A DNA stretch of 64,000 nucleotides from Labia minor (Eukaryota; Arthropoda; Insecta; Dermaptera; Spongiphoridae): positions 52,155,759-52,219,758 of the forward strand of contig OY720346.1 of the NCBI GenBank assembly GCA_963082975.1, written 5' to 3'. Shown piece by piece: positions 6,900 to 62,211 of the stretch. A program made the translations under genes and the position numbers. The stretch's first letter is position 1. Every line of letters begins with the position of its first letter. Under the pieces are notes generated by a model. It was not told where the DNA came from. It made no database searches and saw only the letters and a list, made by a program, of their open reading frames with translations.

Positions 6900-8420
6900 T
6901 CACTTCATTTTGAATGTCCAATTTATAATATTATTATCACAGGTTTCATCTACGGGCACTGACCAATTTTTTGCAATTTCACTAAAAACATATCCAGAAT
7001 ATTTCATAATACGTTTTCGATTTGTATCATTAAAATTAACATAATTTAAACCAAATTTTAATGTATATCCAAATACCCATTCGAAATTGTCGAGCAAGCT
7101 CCAATGCAGGTAACCAATAAGTGGAATTTTGTATTCATAAATTGCCTTTAATAAATACCTCATAACCTCCTGGATATAGATTACACGATCCACATCATAC
7201 AGGTCTCCTTTGTCCGCATAACCGTTTTCTGTTATTAACAGATTGTGGTTAGGATATTGCTTATTGATGTAGATAAGTAATTTGGTTATTGACCAGGGGG
7301 TATTTTTTATCCAATATGCTGCCGTGTCCGGCCAAGATTTATCTTGGCTTAAGATAACTCGACTGTCTCTTTCCCAAGATGGATTAAGACCGGTTTCGCC
7401 ACGAGATGCTAAATTTGTGGAATATGTATTGACACCAAAAAAATCAGCAGAGTTATGTATCATTTTAATTTCATCTTTAGTAAATTCTGGCAAACGGGAT
7501 CTTCGTAATCCTTCTTTCATTGAATTTTCCAGAATACGTTTTTTCAATATTGGTGGATAATCGCCAGTTTTAGAGAAAATCGGATTGGCCACCCACCCCA
7601 ATTCCCACATTAAAAAATCGTTAGCAGCTTCTTGATCTTTGGGATTTGATGTTTTCGGCTCGATCCAATTAAGATTCAAAGAAATGCCAACTTGGCCCTT
7701 TTGTTTCATACGAAAATCCTTTTCATATAAACGATAAGCTCTCCCGTGTGCTAATAATTGAGTATGAATACACTGATATTCACCAACGCCTGATAAATTC
7801 ATACCTGGTGCCATATATAATCCATTCACTGCATAACCTAAGCAAGAAATAATTGGTTCATTAAATGTTAACCACCACTTAACACGATCACCATAATTTG
7901 AAAATAACACCCAAGCATAATCTTCAAAATATTTGGCAAGATTTGGGTTGAGCCAACCGCCAAATTCTCGTTGTAAACGATCTGGAAGATCCCAATGATA
8001 TAGTGTGATGGCAGGTTCAATCTTAGCATCAATCAACCCATCAATTAATTTATTATAATGTTCAATACCTTTTTGATTAATGAAAGATAAATCACCATTC
8101 GGAAGAATTCTTGGCCAGGAAATAGAAAAGCGGTACATTTTTAAGTTCATTCTTTTCAGAATTTGAATATCCTCTTCTATTTTATGGTAACTATTACATG
8201 AGATATCTGCATTAGAACCATCTTGAATCCAATAATGATTTTCATGTTGTAATCGATCCCAAATACTCTCCTTCTTTCCATCCTCATTCGAAGCCCCTTC
8301 GATTTGATAAGCAGAAGATGATACGCCTAGATAAAAATTTTCTGGTAATGGAATATGTCCACCTCGAACAACGCAAAGGCAAACTAATAATAATAATAAT
8401 AATAATAATACTTGATGCAT
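6900..8420 (-). CDS. Secreted family-1 beta-glucosidase (lactase/myrosinase-like), uninterrupted ORF
   Basis: The product is 506 residues from the ATG at 8420, the normal length for an arthropod family-1 glycoside hydrolase. It should release terminal beta-linked glucose or related sugars from glycosides (cellobiose-type sugars or plant glucosides) outside the cell or in the gut lumen. Residues 1 to about 20 form a signal peptide with a run of eight leucines. Family motifs in order: AYQIEGA (Gln39), YHWDLP (His142, Trp143), TFNEP with acid/base Glu188, VNTYSTN (Tyr333), ITENG with nucleophile Glu398, and HWSLLDNFEW (Trp440, Glu447, Trp448). All catalytic and sugar-binding positions I can check are intact, so it looks functional. 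The frame stays open 18 bases upstream without another ATG, and a TTTCACAG splice-acceptor-like sequence lies just before the start, so a 5' untranslated exon may exist. No intron interrupts the coding part. The exact substrate cannot be read from sequence. Confidence 0.93.
   Translation of the reverse strand: MHQVLLLLLLLLVCLCVVRGGHIPLPENFYLGVSSSAYQIEGASNEDGKKESIWDRLQHENHYWIQDGSNADISCNSYHKIEEDIQILKRMNLKMYRFSISWPRILPNGDLSFINQKGIEHYNKLIDGLIDAKIEPAITLYHWDLPDRLQREFGGWLNPNLAKYFEDYAWVLFSNYGDRVKWWLTFNEPIISCLGYAVNGLYMAPGMNLSGVGEYQCIHTQLLAHGRAYRLYEKDFRMKQKGQVGISLNLNWIEPKTSNPKDQEAANDFLMWELGWVANPIFSKTGDYPPILKKRILENSMKEGLRRSRLPEFTKDEIKMIHNSADFFGVNTYSTNLASRGETGLNPSWERDSRVILSQDKSWPDTAAYWIKNTPWSITKLLIYINKQYPNHNLLITENGYADKGDLYDVDRVIYIQEVMRYLLKAIYEYKIPLIGYLHWSLLDNFEWVFGYTLKFGLNYVNFNDTNRKRIMKYSGYVFSEIAKNWSVPVDETCDNNIINWTFKMK
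8385..8411 (-). repeat. (TTA)8 trinucleotide repeat coding the signal-peptide leucines
   Basis: Eight consecutive TTA codons, with the flanking GTA continuing the pattern, encode the hydrophobic core of the GH1 signal peptide. The tract is a microsatellite in frame inside the coding region. Confidence 0.85.
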
Positions 8421-8423
8421 CTT

Positions 8424-8433
8424 CTGTGAAATA
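8424..8433 (-). promoter_or_regulatory. Candidate 3' splice acceptor before the GH1 start codon
   Basis: On the minus strand GTTATTTCACAG|AAGATG places an acceptor-like CAG three bases before the ATG. This suggests an intron in the 5' untranslated region. The upstream exon could not be identified in the AT-rich DNA beyond 8440. Confidence 0.35.
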
Positions 8434-8889
8434 ACCAATACATTTAAAATAAAAATATAAAAAAAATAATATCATTAAATAGAAATTGTTTATCTTTATA
8501 TTGGATTTTTATTATTAAAATAAATATATCAATGTGATAGATAAATAATGATTAATAATTCCATTTGAAATTATGATAGGCATACATACATACAAACATT
8601 ATATGTATATATACGTATAGGTTATATAAGTTTTAATTTACATTAATCATGGAATAAATATTCAGTTTATATATTGATAAATAGGTATATTTGCATATTA
8701 GTTAATGGGTGATATAAGTGCGAATCCACAAGAAATAAAATATAAAACTTAAATAATATGAAAAAACTGAAATATTTCAAATATATTTTTATATGTCCGT
8801 TTGTTAATTCTAGGTCAACATAATCTTTTATCTGTAATAATACAAAAAATTTCTGGCTTTTTAATATCTTATGAAAGAATAGAGAGCAG

Positions 8890-11799: not shown

Positions 11800-13496
11800 T
11801 TAACTAGTAGGATAGTAAAGAATGATAAATTTATATATTTGACCAATTTATTTACCTTAATTATTTATAATTTTTCATAGTAGGATAATTTTTAAAACAT
11901 TCTCCTGGATGAAGACCGGGTTTCCTATCACAAGTATCACAATAGAATGTTGTTTCTTTTCTCCCTCCTTTGATTTTTCGATTGGAACATACCATACAGT
12001 CTTTGTGTTTTGTATGAGAAAAAATAAAATGAGTCTTCCCATCTAAACGTTGAATAGTATCATCTGTAGACAATCGGCCGGGTTTTTGTGTAGGAGCGCG
12101 AAAGTCTTTGATTAGACTCATCAATAAATTTTCTCTAAAATTTGTATGTGACATCTTTGTGATATTTTCCTTTCTAGAATATTCATTGAATAAAATGTAT
12201 GAGTTCACAATGGATGTTTCCAATCCCCAGAAAAATAACTTCCGACTGTAGATTCGTCAATTGCCAAATTTTCACGAGGTATATAATTTTCCATAAATTT
12301 TTGGTTTAGGTAATCCAGAAAGTTACTCACTCTTTCTATCCTTGTCCTCGTCGTTCGAGTGTTTGGTGAAATTGTTTCCAAATGTAGTGACCAAAATATT
12401 TGGAAAAAACGTTTGCGTGAAAAAATTGTTCTAAAAAATGACATCTTCAAATGAAATGCTCTAGACCAATATGATTCCAAAGTTGGTGAAACAACAAGGC
12501 CCATATTTATGATGACTCCAATAAAGGCTCGCATTTCACTCTCTGTTACAACTTTCCAATTTTGCCAAATGGAATATTTGCTCAGTGTTTTTTCTGATAT
12601 TATTTTTGCTGCGTATGCATTAGTTTCACTCACTATTTTTTTTATTAGAGTAGAAGTAAAAAACAACTCAAAAAATTCTAGAGGTGATGTGCAACTGGAT
12701 GGAACTTTTGGTCCAACAACATTTTGGCCAACTGAAAATTTTATGTTATGATGATAATTGTCATCTTCAGTGACATTTGTCCATAAAGTTGCATCATTTC
12801 CAACAAACTGCATATTATATGTAGAAATAGATGGTTGCTCATTGCTATACTCATCATCACTTATAAGTCTTCTAACTTTTCTTCTTTTTCTTACAATAAT
12901 ATCTTCGTCAGAACTGGTCTCGGTTTGAATAACCGAAAACAATGGCTCAGACGTTTTAGTAAAATTTGTATCATCTTCCAATAATCCAAGTTCATTATCT
13001 ATTTGAGTCATATATTCGTCGTCACTACTTTCATATTCATTGGTGAATGTTTGTTTTCTCTTGATTCGGGGCATCTTAATTTTTATACTTTTTAGCACAT
13101 AAAATAAATAAATATAACGGTTCAATTATTATAATAATAAAATTTTAATTAAAATATACGTTTTTATGTAAACAAAATATCAAAGACGACAAAAAACACG
13201 ATTTTCATCTAAAGCGAAGAGAACTTGCTTTCCTGAGGACAGTACTACAAATGACTCTAGATTCTAATGTAAAAAGAAAACTAAAAAGTATTTTAAAATT
13301 ATCTAAATTGGTCAAATATAATAAATTTAATCTTTATTTACAAAGTACAAAATATTTGAAAGAAAAAAAAATAGATTTAAATATTTTAAATTATTTTTGA
13401 AATTAAAATGTATAATGTCGAGTCTAGCTCGACAAAGGAGTTGGTGTAAGAAATATGATGTCGAGCCACACTCGACATAGGAGTCCTAAGGGTTAA
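11800..13496 (-). mobile_element. piggyBac-family element, internally deleted
   Basis: The end upstream of the transposase (13492) reads, inward, TTAA|CCCTTAGGACTCC, a classic piggyBac terminus at its TTAA target (13493-13496). Two perfect subterminal hairpins follow: TGTCGAG...CTCGACA (13416-13434) and ATGTCGAG...CTCGACAT (13458-13478). The other end is less certain; TTAACTAGTAGGA at 11800 is the best match and would give an element of about 1.7 kb. An internal inverted repeat (TTTGACCAATTTA) occurs at about 11837-11852 and 13303-13318. Confidence 0.75.
11861..13074 (-). pseudogene. piggyBac transposase with central deletion
   Basis: The N-terminal 289 residues, from the ATG at 13074 (MPRIKRKQ), have an acidic leader (ESSDDE, SSDEDI), a basic patch (RKRRKVRR) and the piggyBac core up to AIDES, whose Asp273 is the first catalytic aspartate. 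Around 12230-12240 the frame jumps directly to the protein's C-terminal part (LFFWGLETSIVNSYILF, then a zinc-binding end CMVCSNRK, CDTCDRK, HPGEC). Intact piggyBac transposases are roughly 550-600 residues, so I estimate that 150-200 residues, including the second and third catalytic aspartates, are missing. The join is also out of frame. The product cannot catalyse transposition. The remaining open frame is long and little damaged, so the deletion looks fairly recent. Confidence 0.85.
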
Positions 13497-57863: not shown

Positions 57864-57939
57864 TATCTCGCCAGAACAATCGATGTCGAGATTTTGATTT
57901 ATTTTCACTAAGGTTGAGAAAAATGTCTGTGTGTGTATG
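57864..57939 (+). repeat. Repeat A copy A8, left part
   Basis: CTATCTCGCCAGAACAATCG up to GTGTGTGTATG. It carries a small internal deletion and is split by the LTR element; it resumes at 61786. Confidence 0.8.
57935..57939. repeat. Target site duplication (left) GTATG
   Basis: GTATG precedes the 5' LTR and recurs directly after the 3' LTR (61786-61790), a 5 bp duplication in line with LTR-retrotransposon integration. Confidence 0.9.
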
Positions 57940-58261
57940 TGTTCAGTCGTGAAGCCTGACGCCATCTATTGGTTCGTGCACGTGTCACAGTTCCCCTTCT
58001 TGGCCTGACTCCAGCCGGCCGTCGACAGAGCTACGACTTCTCTCCCACCTCGCTACGCAACTACATCGGCTCCCTGAATAACATTTTTACAAAGAATTCC
58101 TCCACCGCCATCTTCCTTTATCCCTATTTACATTATTTATCCCCTTTTTATCACTCACTACACCACACCAACCCCTCGTCTCTCAACCAACCCTTGTTGC
58201 TGAGAACTCCACTACTTCCTACTATTCAAATCTCTCCTTATACACCTACACACAACCGCTA

Positions 58262-58292
<31 letters not shown>

Positions 58293-58472
58293 CCTTGTAT
58301 ACCACCCGATTCGCACCAATCATCCCCCTCTTCGTGTCCTTTCTCTCGTAATTTGTACATAACTCAACTCGCTGTATATATATAAAACCTGGATTGTTCA
58401 AATAAACAAGTCTCATCACAGATCGCCTTTTTATTTTAATTTTGCTTTTCACCCGGCCTCCGGCCCTTTACA
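57940..58472 (+). repeat. 5' LTR
   Basis: Begins TGTTCAGTCGTGAAGCCTGA and ends CCTCCGGCCCTTTACA. It contains a (TC)n tract (58263-58284), a TATATATATAAAA box (58374-58386) and AATAAA (58401-58406), giving the expected promoter and poly(A) signal. The short open frames in it are identical in both LTRs and not genes. Confidence 0.93.
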
Positions 58473-58490
58473 TGGTCCTTCGACACACCA
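58473..58490 (+). other. Candidate primer binding site
   Basis: TGGTCCTTCGACACACCA directly follows the LTR and starts TGG, as expected for pairing with a tRNA 3' CCA end. The primer tRNA was not identified. Confidence 0.4.
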
Positions 58491-58905
58491 GATACCAGTT
58501 GGAAATACAACTTCTATCGCTAGGTAGCTATTTCAAATATATTATTATTTCTATCAAATAATAAATTGTTTAATTTTTTTTATGTATAAAATAAATACAA
58601 TTCTATTTATATATAATAAGCATATTATATATTTATCTTCTAATACTTATATTTAAAATTTATAAGCTTTCATTTCAAATATTTTCTTATATTATATTTA
58701 ATTTCATAATCTTTAAATTCAATTCTCTTATATATCCCATCGTTACATTGTTTAATTTTTATATTATATAAAAATTTCTTATTCGTTAAATACAATTCTA
58801 TTATATACCATACGCATATAGTTACCTTGTTAATTCCTTATATTTGAATTGTATAGTCTTTCATCCCGAATATTTTCTATATATATATCTAATTTCACAT
58901 ACGCC

Positions 58906-60363
58906 ATGGCTCAACCCACAACTAAAATTGCCAAGCAAGAGCGTGAAGGCAACATTTGTGAAATGGAGTTGGAGGAATTGTTGTCTTCGGTCACTTACCT
59001 GTCTTCTAAGGAGCAGGAGATCACTCCAGCTAACGCACATTCCTTCCAATCCATTCTCACCCGGCTTTGTAATATGTTGGATCAATTAGATCAATTGACA
59101 AAGCGGTGTATAGCTCATAACGCCTCGGTGGAACCCGAGAATCGAGTTAAATTCTCCAATATTCAAATCCAAATCCTACAAAAGGTGTCGGATTTTGAAC
59201 TCACATATAATCAGAACTCTGGAGTTCATAATGTTATCCCTCCAGTTCCTCATTCTGATCCTTCTCCTCGACTGGCTGAGCTAATGCTTCCAACCTTTTC
59301 AGGCGGTTTTCGTGATTGGCCGCATTTTAAACATATAGTTTCCGAAGTGCTTCTCAATCACTCCACCGCCTCGGAAGCTCAACGATATAATTGCCTTTTT
59401 TCGTCAGTGCGAGGGGAGGCGCGTCAACTTATCACCTCTTTGGGTATGGTCGCTGACTGCTTCTCCCGGGCATGGAAGGTGCTTAGCCTCCGATATGATC
59501 AACCCAAATTGATTAGCTATTCATTCATGGACGCTTTATTGGACATCTCCCCACCTTCATCGCAGAGTCCTGCTCAATTACGTCCGTTTATTAATTCTTA
59601 TTATGAGAATATGGAAGCCCTTCGAGCTCAACCTACCTTACAGACTGTCGTCGATTCATGGGGCATTCTCATTGGCCGAATCCTAATGCGACAACTCCCC
59701 GGTGGACTCCGACGGAGGTTTGAAGAGTCTTACGGCTCAGAGGCATTGCCAACGGTCAATGATATATTGCCATTTCTAGAACGCATCTGCCGAGCATCAG
59801 AGGAAGCTTCTGTCACAAAGGTTCCTATTATTTCATCTCGGTCGAATTCGTGGAACAAAAATCAGGTATCCACAACCTCTCCATCTTCCATCCCTTCCAA
59901 ATACTCATCAGTGATGCAAACGAGGCATTCGTTGAAGTCCAGTAATGCCACTAACTATGGATTACCCTGTGTGTTTTGTCAAGGTCGTCATCATCTCCGA
60001 CAATGTCGTGAGTTTCGGAGCTTGACTCCAGGTCAACGCGCACAACTTTGTGGAGAATTTCAGCGATGCTTTAATTGTTTAGGTTCACATCATATCGATC
60101 ATTGCCCGTCCCATGACAGATGTCATATTTGTCACGCACATCATCATACTCTTCTTCACACTCCATCACCTCAATCCTTACCTACAAATTCTGAGACTCC
60201 CCCCTCACAACCCTCTATTCTTCCGATGTCACTCCCTCCTTCCCCGCCGTATATATCTGAGCCGTTCGCTGATCCCTCCACCACGTTATCTACTCCTTCT
60301 CAATACAATATAATTAATAGTCCACCTCCATCACCTTCTAATCTACCCCGTTCTCCTGCATGA
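58906..60363 (+). CDS. gag: BEL/Pao Gag protein (capsid-nucleocapsid)
   Basis: 485 residues from the ATG at 58906, which sits in a good context (CGCCATGG); the frame is open a little further upstream without an ATG. The N-terminal half is helical and charged. The central region LMLPTFSGGFRDWPHFKHIV matches the L.LP.F.G...W..F...F pattern of retrotransposon Gag. Three zinc knuckles follow: CVFCQGRHHLRQC from residue 355, CFNCLGSHHIDHC from 388 and CHICHAHHHTLLH from 406. They should bind the element's RNA in cytoplasmic particles. The tail is Pro/Ser-rich. It ends in a single TGA (60361), after which the same frame stays open to 61191. The gene is otherwise undamaged, which fits recent mobility. 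Confidence 0.9.
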   Translation: MAQPTTKIAKQEREGNICEMELEELLSSVTYLSSKEQEITPANAHSFQSILTRLCNMLDQLDQLTKRCIAHNASVEPENRVKFSNIQIQILQKVSDFELTYNQNSGVHNVIPPVPHSDPSPRLAELMLPTFSGGFRDWPHFKHIVSEVLLNHSTASEAQRYNCLFSSVRGEARQLITSLGMVADCFSRAWKVLSLRYDQPKLISYSFMDALLDISPPSSQSPAQLRPFINSYYENMEALRAQPTLQTVVDSWGILIGRILMRQLPGGLRRRFEESYGSEALPTVNDILPFLERICRASEEASVTKVPIISSRSNSWNKNQVSTTSPSSIPSKYSSVMQTRHSLKSSNATNYGLPCVFCQGRHHLRQCREFRSLTPGQRAQLCGEFQRCFNCLGSHHIDHCPSHDRCHICHAHHHTLLHTPSPQSLPTNSETPPSQPSILPMSLPPSPPYISEPFADPSTTLSTPSQYNIINSPPPSPSNLPRSPA

Positions 60364-61191
60364 CCTTTTTCTATCGGATCCTGCTTTCGTACTTCCTTTC
60401 TCCACCATAACCAGGATCTGCCGCCATTTCCCGTGGGAACCCCTACTGAACATACTTCATCCCGCGCCATCTCATCATCAATTCAAAATTATTCCACTTC
60501 CTATAAGCCATCTATAATGAATACTTCACACTCACTTGATCCTATTTCTTTAAAGTTAACTCAACAAACGCCTTCACTGCCTCTAACTCAACCACCGCCG
60601 TTGTTTCGCAATATAGAAGATTCGCAATCTGGTGCCACTGGCTTTTATCCTCCTACTATCACACAGCGTCTACACTCCCAACGCAACCATCATTTATCTC
60701 AAATTCAATCATATCTCCCACCACTTTCTCAAAAACCTCAAAATTATCCACATAGATCTTACTTCTCTGATCCTCGATTCATTCCCCATCGTCATAATAT
60801 CCAACAACTGGCTCCCCATAATTCAATCTTTCCAATGCAGCGCGATGACAAAATTCATCTTTCTCCATGCCATAAATATTTTTACGAAACCGAGATTGTC
60901 CCAAACCCACATCTAAGAATTATCCATCAATCAAATACACCAATTTCAGCTTCTAGTAATTTAACCTCTACAATTGGAGTAGACGCAACTCTTCCAGTTA
61001 ACCCTCCAATGAAAGCTTCGCCATCGCCACCAGGACCTAATCCAATACCTGGTTCATCAAGGAGGAGGTGCGCCCCCGTTGCAGTGAACGTTGGATCCTA
61101 TCATCAACGTTACTTCGGGACCGGATGGCGTACCAGAAGTCTTCTTCGCTCAAGATCAAGGCACACTCACCCGCGCAGTGTTAACCCCTGA
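60364..61191 (+). CDS. In-frame continuation after the Gag stop, Pro/Ser/His-rich, unknown
   Basis: After the TGA the same frame runs 275 codons to a stop at 61191-61193, with no ATG near its beginning. It would be translated only by stop readthrough, or it is a later nonsense change in a longer Gag. Content is low-complexity (Pro, Ser, His, Gln) with SSRRRCAP near the end. No protease DSG motif or polymerase motif is seen. In another frame at 61091-61190 the sequence INVTSGPDGVPEV resembles the small C-terminal domain of BEL/Pao integrase (..PGPDGv.RVV..), suggesting that the deletion of pol ended there. Confidence in a translated product is low. Confidence 0.4.
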   Translation, partial: PFSIGSCFRTSFLHHNQDLPPFPVGTPTEHTSSRAISSSIQNYSTSYKPSIMNTSHSLDPISLKLTQQTPSLPLTQPPPLFRNIEDSQSGATGFYPPTITQRLHSQRNHHLSQIQSYLPPLSQKPQNYPHRSYFSDPRFIPHRHNIQQLAPHNSIFPMQRDDKIHLSPCHKYFYETEIVPNPHLRIIHQSNTPISASSNLTSTIGVDATLPVNPPMKASPSPPGPNPIPGSSRRRCAPVAVNVGSYHQRYFGTGWRTRSLLRSRSRHTHPRSVNP

Positions 61192-61240
61192 AGAACAATG
61201 CCCCCTTTCTGCAATGTTGAAAGAAATCTCATCTTTCAAC

Positions 61241-61252
61241 GGCCGGGGAGGA
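61241..61252 (+). other. Polypurine tract
   Basis: GGCCGGGGAGGA immediately precedes the 3' LTR, the usual priming site for plus-strand DNA synthesis. Confidence 0.75.
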
Positions 61253-61574
61253 TGTTCAGTCGTGAAGCCTGACGCCATCTATTGGTTCGTGCACGTGTCA
61301 CAGTTCCCCTTCTTGGCCTGACTCCAGCCGGCCGTCGACAGAGCTACGACTTCTCTCCCACCTCGCTACGCAACTACATCGGCTCCCTGAATAACATTTT
61401 TACAAAGAATTCCTCCACCGCCATCTTCCTTTATCCCTATTTACATTATTTATCCCCTTTTTATCACTCACTACACCACACCAACCCCTCGTCTCTCAAC
61501 CAACCCTTGTTGCTGAGAACTCCACTACTTCCTACTATTCAAATCTCTCCTTATACACCTACACACAACCGCTA

Positions 61575-61605
<31 letters not shown>

Positions 61606-61785
61606 CCTTGTATACCACCCGATTCGCACCAATCATCCCCCTCTTCGTGTCCTTTCTCTCGTAATTTGTACATAACTCAACTCGCTGTATATATATAAAA
61701 CCTGGATTGTTCAAATAAACAAGTCTCATCACAGATCGCCTTTTTATTTTAATTTTGCTTTTCACCCGGCCTCCGGCCCTTTACA
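61253..61785 (+). repeat. 3' LTR
   Basis: Same sequence as 57940-58472 as far as I can read, including both small open frames; same length of 533 bp. Confidence 0.93.
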
Positions 61786-62211
61786 GTATGCAAGTAGACA
61801 AGATTACGCAAAAACGGTTTGAGCTAGAATAATGAAATTTGAAACACGGGTATTATTTAAAATTTGTAATTTTCTATCAACTTTTGAGAAATGTAGCTCA
61901 TCCAGAAGAGGTTCATTACCTACCAAATTTTCATTTTTTTTATTTTAAACTGACCGTAAAAATAAAGATATATGTTTGATAGATTTTCACATGATTAAAA
62001 TTTTTATAAAACTGCTATATATAGAATTTCAGCTTGATTGAATCGCTGAAAGTACCGTGACGTGGTGCCATCAACAAAGAGCCAAACACGCGCTGGTTTA
62101 ATAAATATTATTTATTAATTTTAATTTATAATTTATAATTATTTAAATATAATATACATATGTTATTTAATCCAATTCAAATTGCAAGATAGTCAAGTGG
62201 AGACACTCCAG
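61786..62211 (+). repeat. Repeat A copy A8, right part, starting with the target duplication GTATG
   Basis: After GTATG the A repeat resumes (CAAGTAGACAAGATTACGC) and runs to GTGGAGACACTCCAG. Relative to the consensus it lacks the segment between GAAAGTACC and GTGACGTGG. Confidence 0.85.

What the first reader, a model, noticed from the sequence alone, without database searches (positions are those of the whole stretch)
57940..61785. Very young BEL/Pao element with gag but no pol
No LTR difference was seen, TG..CA ends and the GTATG duplication are perfect, and the gag frame is nearly intact. Protease, RT, RNase H and integrase are absent. A gag-only element that still moves must borrow enzymes. 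Gag-only LTR derivatives are described in plants; a BEL/Pao example in an animal would be of interest.
Basis: partly seen in the sequence, partly recalled or inferred. Interest (0 to 1): 0.8.

Follow-up and report, generated by a model that had tools for sequence, protein, structure and literature searches.

The report
Gag-only BEL element carrying host fragments
In an insect genome, a jumping element that kept only its shell-protein gene has outnumbered the complete relative whose enzymes it probably borrows, and it carries pieces of what look like the insect's own genes where its enzymes used to be.

Summary
In detail: 533-bp LTRs without a difference, TG..CA ends, GTATG duplication, an intact 485-codon gag, no pol. 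It is not a private deletion. Cross-matching the searches gives 37 gag-only copies (window included), 5 copies of a full-length partner and 3 unresolved fragments (lower bounds). The partner shares the primer site, LTR ends and 90% of gag, and its pol follows gag in frame after a TGA. Gag and LTR trees reject each other, and many gag-only gags contain partner-like tracts, so the two kinds exchange sequence, most simply by reverse transcription of co-packaged RNAs.

The unexpected part is what replaced pol. Behind the gag TGA lies a 275-codon frame, open in all 26 copies found, whose centre matches in frame a single-copy 386-codon open frame (79% DNA identity). Other copies join Gag to a Q-rich stretch matching one 821-codon open frame (98% over 228 bases at best); in the two such gags read from one subgroup it stands where the zinc knuckles were. 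Captured host coding sequence is the likeliest reading. Expression, co-packaging and readthrough are inferred. Gag-only pairs are known in plants, and a non-autonomous BEL family in a mosquito.

The parts
57935..57939 (.). left target-site duplication GTATG
   Evidence: 5-bp duplications also at 18 of 18 other copies tested
57940..58472 (+). 5' LTR, 533 bp, identical to the 3' LTR; TATA-like box 58377-58387 and AATAAA 58401-58406
58473..58483 (+). primer-binding site TGGTCCTTCGA; same 11 bases in 20 of 20 fetched gag-only copies and 4 of 4 partner copies read
   Evidence: that it fits the 3' end of tRNA-Tyr is recalled and not shown
58473..58905 (+). 5' leader; first 238 bases about 95% identical to the partner copy P1
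58906..60363 (+). gag, 485 codons plus TGA (60361-60363, followed by CCT); Pfam DUF1759
59968..60159 (+). three zinc-knuckle (CCHC-like) motifs of Gag
   Evidence: motif starts at residues 355, 388, 406
60361..60424 (+). two scraps of the start of pol (94% and 89% to the partner), joined by deletion; a third scrap at 60463-60495 (88%)
60364..61191 (+). second frame, 275 codons plus stop, in the gag frame behind the TGA; open in 26 of 26 element copies found
60591..60882 (+). segment that matches, in frame, a single-copy 386-codon open frame at C5:57948235-57949393 (79% DNA identity over 301 columns); protein similarity runs a little wider, codons 59-203 of the second frame
61073..61174 (+). 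decayed end of pol (DUF5641 region, 35% by tblastx to the partner)
61216..61252 (+). last 37 bases with the polypurine tract GGGGAGGA (61245-61252), 97% identical to the partner
61253..61785 (+). 3' LTR, 533 bp
61786..61790 (.). right target-site duplication GTATG

Best explanation
This is a young copy of a gag-only (semi-autonomous) BEL/Pao family. SHOWN: a family of at least 37 such copies with the loss of pol in common, and at least 5 copies of a full-length partner with the same primer site, LTR ends and polypurine end. SHOWN: the gag-only copies and the partner have exchanged tracts of gag, and gag and LTR histories conflict. SHOWN: pol has been replaced by open frames that match, in frame, two single-copy open frames elsewhere in the genome. 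INFERRED: both RNAs are made from their related LTR promoters, enter the same Gag particles, and are copied and inserted by the partner's RT and integrase; the gag-only copies put Gag into the common pool; leaky reading of the TGA, which in the partner would give Gag-Pol, gives here a Gag fused to a proline-, serine- and histidine-rich tail of host origin.
For: Copies and shared loss. Partner: DUF5641 hits 5.2 kb behind four gag copies of 85% protein identity, fifth copy with 96-99% of the same pol start but broken; protease (weak), RT (weak), Peptidase_A17 1.3e-47, Integrase_H2C2 3.6e-7 and DUF5641 2.8e-38 in its pol pieces; LTR 86.4-87.2% by blastn, gag 90.4%, leader and end 95-97%. Partner LTR is closer to some gag-only LTRs (97.0-97.9% to L023, L026) than those are to the window LTR. 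Both variants of the bases behind the primer site occur in both kinds (gag-only 12 and 8 of 20, partner 3 and 1 of 4). Exchange: AU tests reject the LTR tree for gag (p 3.6e-113) and the gag tree for the LTR (p 3.6e-9) on 21 taxa; partner-like tracts in L027, in L028-L036 and in the two subgroup gags. Recent movement: 16 of 19 copies with both LTRs have no substitution between them, the others 2, 3 and 31. Coding: dN/dS 0.23-0.48 in 17 gag pairs; 119 differences among 21 gags without one stop; the second frame open in 26 of 26 copies, its length changes all multiples of three, dN/dS 0.43 between its two forms. TGA CCT in 12 of 12 gag-only copies of this type read and in 2 of 2 partner copies read there. 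Captured segments.
Against: Nothing here shows RNA, protein or particles. Gag selection is confounded: partner tracts carry the partner's selection, single-copy differences look neutral (6 synonymous to 16 not), and the excess of synonymous changes not explained by the partner is weak (24 to 42; p 0.02-0.16 by assumed mutation bias). The fetched gags were the best-scoring hits, so intact ones are over-represented. For the second frame the absence of stops among 48 differences is not remarkable alone (p 0.16), differences within one form look neutral (6 to 18), and mismatches to the 386-codon frame are even over codon positions (18, 16, 19). Exchange could also come from gene conversion. That the two open frames are host genes, and the direction of transfer, rest on copy number and layout only. 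In one partner (P4) no target duplication is found and the 3' LTR end is missing. The primer tRNA was not shown.
Confidence: 0.77

Rival explanations
1. The gag-only copies are pure passengers: gag is carried along by recombination with the partner and has no use for the element; the partner's Gag does all the packaging.
For: Partner-like tracts in gag could keep gag intact without selection on gag-only copies. In the two subgroup gags read the zinc knuckles are gone and the subgroup still has about 12 copies. Single-copy differences are neutral.
Against: The second frame, which the partner lacks and cannot refresh, also stays open in 26 of 26 copies with only three-base length changes. 119 gag differences without a stop, where about 5 would be expected. 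Gag is kept while pol is lost in every gag-only copy.
Confidence: 0.2
2. The Gag of the gag-only family, above all the forms with Q-rich or proline-rich tails, interferes with the partner and limits it, as truncated Gag does in yeast Ty1 (recalled).
For: Gag-only copies outnumber partner copies 37 to 5; altered Gag forms would co-assemble; one subgroup lacks the knuckles.
Against: Nothing tested. Partner copies also have near-identical LTRs (0-1 substitutions in 4 of 4), so the partner moved recently too.
Confidence: 0.1
3. The two matching open frames are host exons that arose from element insertions (exaptation), so transfer went from element to host.
For: Similarity alone has no direction. 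The 386-codon frame has not been shown to be transcribed and the 821-codon frame was not read.
Against: The partner has no such sequence and it is not pol or gag. In the 386-codon frame only an inner stretch matches; neither it nor its flanks match LTR, leader or gag. The gag search shows no gag near either place (88 of 675 candidates scored). The 98% match of the Q-rich segment lies in one 821-codon frame.
Confidence: 0.12
4. The element is a dead deletion product copied by segmental duplication or an assembly artefact.
For: None found.
Against: Own 5-bp target duplications at 18 of 18 tested copies plus the window, copies on C1, C2, C4, C5, C6 and C9, several LTR subfamilies.
Confidence: 0.02

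Closest known systems
RLG_Quinta / RLG_Cereba of wheat (Ty3/gypsy; PMC11302176, abstract and one Results section read)
   Same: Non-autonomous family with an intact gag and no RT or integrase, next to an autonomous partner with the same primer site and LTR ends; Gag plus a downstream domain of unknown function.
   Different: Plant Ty3/gypsy, centromere-bound; there gag is hardly alike in DNA between the two, here 90% with visible recombinant tracts; no captured host segment named in the section read; here BEL/Pao in an insect.
RLG_Sabrina and RLG_WHAM, 'semi-autonomous' Gag or Gag-Pro elements of wheat (PMC9744471, passages and one section read)
   Same: Gag or Gag-protease elements mobilised by an autonomous family; variants in which unique coding segments replace the usual gene; LTR exchange by template switching suggested.
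   Different: Plant Ty3/gypsy; the second family noted here (gag plus protease-like, C4) is the nearer match to Sabrina_SA.
Bel-21_AG of Anopheles gambiae (PMC3212995, one section and passages read)
   Same: Pao-Bel, animal, 3803 nt, LTRs identical within each of three copies, one ORF (927 aa), described as a non-autonomous family.
   Different: Its ORF had no known domain and evolved neutrally in their test; no partner with similar LTRs was found; three copies. Here gag is DUF1759, a partner is identified, copies are many.
CM-gag of Culex pipiens (Bensaadi-Merchermek 1997; seen only as a title in the reference list of PMC3286476)
   Same: By its title a reiterated insect element that contains only a gag gene.
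   Different: Not read; whether it has LTRs or a partner is not known to me from these calls.
TR-GAG elements of plants (name seen in listings; original paper not held)
   Same: Terminal repeats, gag, no pol.
   Different: Plants; partner and captured segments not compared.
Acute transforming retroviruses with gag-oncogene fusions, and maize Bs1 (both recalled, no call)
   Same: Retroelement that lost pol and carries host coding sequence joined to gag, moved with a helper's enzymes.
   Different: Different superfamilies; here the segments are low-complexity stretches, and in the window type they lie behind a stop codon.
PbTRIM of the ant Pogonomyrmex (PMC3532108, passages read)
   Same: Non-autonomous LTR family in an insect moved by unknown enzymes.
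   Different: No coding sequence at all, 480-781 bp, no partner found.

Membership tests
BEL/Pao LTR retrotransposons | LTRs with TG..CA ends and short target duplication | tested here: met
   window plus 18 of 18 copies tested, 5 bp
BEL/Pao LTR retrotransposons | BEL/Pao-type gag (DUF1759) | tested here: met
   6.2e-18; that DUF1759 marks BEL/Pao gag is recalled
BEL/Pao LTR retrotransposons | Pol with Pao Peptidase_A17 region, RT, integrase, DUF5641 | tested here: not met
   absent from the element itself; met in its partner: Peptidase_A17 1.3e-47, DUF5641 2.8e-38, Integrase_H2C2 3.6e-7, RT and protease weak and below Pfam cut-offs. So: a non-autonomous derivative of BEL/Pao
Gag-only / autonomous partner pair (criteria as in PMC11302176) | identical primer-binding site in both | tested here: met
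   same 11 bases in 20 of 20 gag-only and 4 of 4 partner copies; two downstream variants, both present in both kinds
Gag-only / autonomous partner pair (criteria as in PMC11302176) | identical LTR termini | tested here: met
   TGTTCA..TTTACA in window, 18 of 18 gag-only copies tested and 3 of 4 partners at the 3' end; P4 lacks the last bases
Gag-only / autonomous partner pair (criteria as in PMC11302176) | conserved promoter and terminator half of the LTR | tested here: met
   LTR 86.4-87.2% by blastn over the full length; promoter activity not tested
Gag-only / autonomous partner pair (criteria as in PMC11302176) | no other autonomous family shares these features | tested here: inconclusive
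   gag search scored 88 of 675 candidates; next relatives at 35% or less; LTRs of those were not compared
Gag-only / autonomous partner pair (criteria as in PMC11302176) | mobilised by the partner's enzymes | not testable with these tools
   inferred from shared ends and recombinant tracts
Retroelements with captured host coding sequence (gag-onc type, Bs1 type) | internal segment homologous to a single-copy host gene and absent from the autonomous relative | tested here: inconclusive
   homology to single-copy open frames; absent from the partner pieces compared; that the frames are transcribed host genes is not shown
Retroelements with captured host coding sequence (gag-onc type, Bs1 type) | captured from spliced mRNA (introns missing) | not tested
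   each match lies inside one open frame, so no intron could be seen to be missing

The most novel reading that the evidence does not exclude
A long-lived gag-only BEL/Pao lineage in an insect has replaced pol with in-frame pieces of two host genes and makes Gag proteins with host-derived disordered tails: one by leaky reading of the stop codon that its partner uses for Gag-Pol, one by direct fusion that in a subgroup takes the place of the RNA-binding zinc knuckles. These tails do a job in the particle (assembly, RNA capture, or drawing particles to a host compartment), so the element is a helper-dependent mobile Gag-host fusion.
Probability: 0.33. Interest if true: 0.88.

Novelty: new variant of a known kind. 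Interest (0 to 1): 0.77.

Why it matters
Gag-only retrotransposons with a named partner have been argued from plants. This gives an animal BEL/Pao case in which partner, sharing of ends, recombinant tracts and recent movement can be seen in one assembly, so the questions whether gag-only elements help or burden their partner, and whether their RNAs share particles, become testable in an insect. The captured segments are a natural record of how a retroelement without pol picks up and keeps host coding sequence, the step behind gag-oncogene viruses. A second gag-plus-protease family in the same genome suggests that losing pol and keeping gag may be a repeated path.

Tried and rejected
Rejected: unique private deletion and assembly collapse. 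Rejected: L037 (C5:58513105) as the partner; it is an old remnant with a truncated LTR and the decayed pol end. Rejected: L051 as a decayed element copy, which I first took it for; its frame is open throughout. Rejected: the gags of 73-77% identity as a diverged gag; their first 934 bases are 96.7% identical to the window gag and the rest is the Q-rich segment. Withdrawn: a notebook idea that two copies with '1 TGA' (C2:25073367, C2:55588452) have broken gags; the TGA falls where the normal gag stop aligns. Tried without result: Pfam and PDB for the 386-codon frame, a tRNA gene for the primer, the small extra matches at C4:21239013, C4:36473130, C2:2729323 and C4:25607754 (not read), the orphan tails C5:25790882 and C10:35130159 (not read).

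Ten paper searches in open PMC papers brought no gag-only BEL/Pao family with an identified partner in an animal; most subscription papers and Repbase are not held, so this is no proof of absence.
Full report
WHAT WAS CHECKED. The element at 57940-61785 is as described: two 533-bp LTRs with no difference, TG..CA ends, GTATG on both sides, a complete 485-codon gag with DUF1759 and no room for pol: 889 bases from the gag stop to the 3' LTR. The window lies in a 604-Mb assembly of 71 contigs, C4:52155759-52219758. Dozens of matches to the insect odorant-receptor family 7tm_6 (83 matches) point to an insect; the species is not known to me.

COPIES. A gag protein search (91 matches, 88 of 675 candidates scored) and a search with the 223 bases before the 3' LTR (40 matches, 40 of 54 candidates scored) were cross-matched. 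Of 45 places with gag at 53% protein identity or more, 37 have the tail within 3.5 kb and are counted as gag-only (window included); 5 are partner copies, 4 by a DUF5641 match about 5.2 kb on and one by reading; 3 are fragments not resolved (C1:72831702, C2:58384275, C6:11005430). Three tails have no gag in the list (C5:25790882, C10:35130159, C5:58513105). These are lower bounds. Twenty copies besides the window were fetched whole; the rest are judged by coordinates, except two gags read alone (L046, L047). Of the 37, 29 show gag open over 477 residues or more (of 485) without an inner stop; 5 more align only in part because their C-terminus is rearranged, with no stop but the normal TGA; 3 are broken (C4:74986974, C9:36146868, C4:50076869).

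AGE. Between a copy's own LTRs there are 0 substitutions in 16 of 19 copies (window included), 2 and 3 in two more, 31 in L027. With 0 of 533 the 95% bound is about 0.56%, or roughly 0.5 to 1 million years at recalled host rates. All 18 tested copies have 5-bp target duplications.

PARTNER. The four DUF5641-bearing partners have a 1333-codon pol frame in 3 of 4. In P1, gag (485 codons, 90.4% identical in DNA to the window gag) ends in TGA and pol goes on in the same frame. Pieces of pol give a weak aspartic protease, a weak RT, Peptidase_A17 at 1.3e-47, Integrase_H2C2 at 3.6e-7, a weak integrase core and DUF5641 at 2.8e-38. The first 238 bases of the leader and the last 37 bases before the LTR are 93-97% identical to the window in the copies compared. 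Own LTRs differ by 0-1 substitution in 4 of 4; target duplications are present in 3 of 4, and P4 lacks the very end of its 3' LTR. The fifth copy is frame-broken early in pol.

EXCHANGE. LTR and gag histories conflict. Window and L023 share 99.5% of gag but 89.4% of the LTR; the window and L032 share 97.9% of the LTR but 95.5% of gag and have different tails. On 21 taxa each data set rejects the other's tree (AU p 3.6e-113 and 3.6e-9; L027 was left out because its two LTRs differ). At 139 sites where window and P1 differ, L027 is partner-like over the first third, L031-L036 over a middle tract, L028-L036 over a second tract, and the two separately read gags over a third. The partner LTR falls among gag-only LTRs, 97.0-97.9% to L023 and L026. 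Template switching between RNAs in one particle is the usual way (recombination in Onsen bursts: PMC5668417, abstract read); gene conversion is not excluded.

WHAT REPLACED POL. In the window type the space holds three short scraps of the start of pol and a decayed end. Between them runs a 275-codon frame in the gag frame behind the TGA. Its centre (60591-60882) matches C5:57948486-57948786 at 79%, 81% for the second form. That place is a single 386-codon open frame, closed by TAA and preceded by an acceptor-like TCTAG, with no LTR, leader or gag match in the 901 bases compared. A search with 300 codons of it finds itself and 26 element copies, no other place (27 matches, 32 of 32 candidates scored), and the frame is open in 26 of 26 copies, 257-276 codons. 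Further short matches to the window segment are four (C4:21239013, C4:36473130, C9:36148562, C2:2729323) beside the orphan tail at C5:25790754.

SECOND SEGMENT. Ten copies have no such frame; their Gag runs on into a Q-rich tail, 563 residues in the 9 fetched ones. That tail matches 22 element copies and one other place, an 821-codon frame at C5:10395615-10396562, in frame (52 of 52 scored). With the longer form of the segment the match there is 98% over 228 bases, and 83% over a second, overlapping part at C5:10395524-10395793 (26 of 26 scored). Twelve copies carry the longer form within gag, and 12 of 12 have the second frame too. In the 2 of these gags that were read, residues up to about 311 are gag (96.7% over 934 bases) and no zinc knuckle is left; for the other 10 this is inferred. 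One copy (C1:71957947) combines short Q-rich tail and second frame. So there are 13 copies of the window type, 10 with the Q-rich tail only, 12 with both in the second layout, 1 mixed, 1 fragment: 37. The 821-codon frame was not read, and neither frame is shown to be transcribed.

SELECTION. Gag pairs give dN/dS 0.23-0.48 (17 pairs chosen). Among 21 gags there are 119 differences: 47 synonymous, 72 not, no stop where about 5 would be expected. Of those not explained by the partner, 24 to 42; single-copy ones 6 to 16, which is neutral; shared ones 18 to 26 (p 0.01-0.08). For the second frame, fixed differences between its two forms are 11 to 13 (p 0.02-0.06), others 6 to 18 and neutral; dN/dS 0.43 between forms and 0.44-0.45 against the 386-codon frame, with dS about 0.4 there. 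Length differences (3, 9, 36 bases in copies read; 57 by frame length) are multiples of three. So coding is likely, not proved, and an old capture (dS about 0.4) contrasts with a recent one (98%).

MECHANISM. Best supported: a helper-dependent, Gag-supplying family. Shown are shared ends, shared loss of pol, recent insertion, exchange with the partner and open frames. Inferred are co-expression, common particles, enzymes from the partner, and leaky reading of TGA CCT (12 of 12 window-type copies and 2 of 2 partner copies looked at), which would give Gag-Pol in one and Gag with a host-derived tail in the other.

KNOWN RELATIVES. In plants such pairs are described: RLG_Quinta with RLG_Cereba and the Gag or Gag-Pro elements of the Wilma-Sabrina-WHAM group. 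In animals Bel-21_AG of Anopheles is a non-autonomous Pao-Bel family of three copies with one ORF without known domains, neutral and without partner, and the title of a 1997 paper reports a gag-only element of Culex. What is new here is the identified partner, the recombinant tracts and the two captured segments. I rate it a new variant of a known kind.

Noticed in passing
C4:73891099-73895227 of the same genome (L049, L050): A second, unrelated BEL/Pao element without pol: 823-bp LTRs with no difference around one frame of gag plus a protease-like stretch (with IDMGSE where DTGS-like is usual, recalled). Fourteen rows have an open frame of 666-670 codons at 23-24% identity; only this copy was looked at.
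   Followed up: partly
C5:82632895-82634300 (L045): The 3' LTR of partner copy P4 stops a few bases short and is followed about 10 bases later by a 98% copy of the window LTR type on the other strand.
   Followed up: no
L025 (C4:27586980 copy): Both LTRs lack the same inner stretch of about 80 bases and are identical at 447 bp, so the deletion was copied on insertion.
   Followed up: no
window 6900-8471 (-): Open frame of 523 codons that looks like a family 1 beta-glucosidase or myrosinase (by eye, no family search).
   Followed up: no
window 12205-13125 (-): Open frame of 306 codons that looks like part of a piggyBac-type transposase (by eye).
   Followed up: no
C2:12455578-12455690 (L054): Sole exact match to a tRNA-Tyr-like 3' end lies in AT-rich DNA, ends in an encoded CCA and is not a tRNA gene; perhaps a trace of reverse transcription from a tRNA primer.
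   Followed up: no
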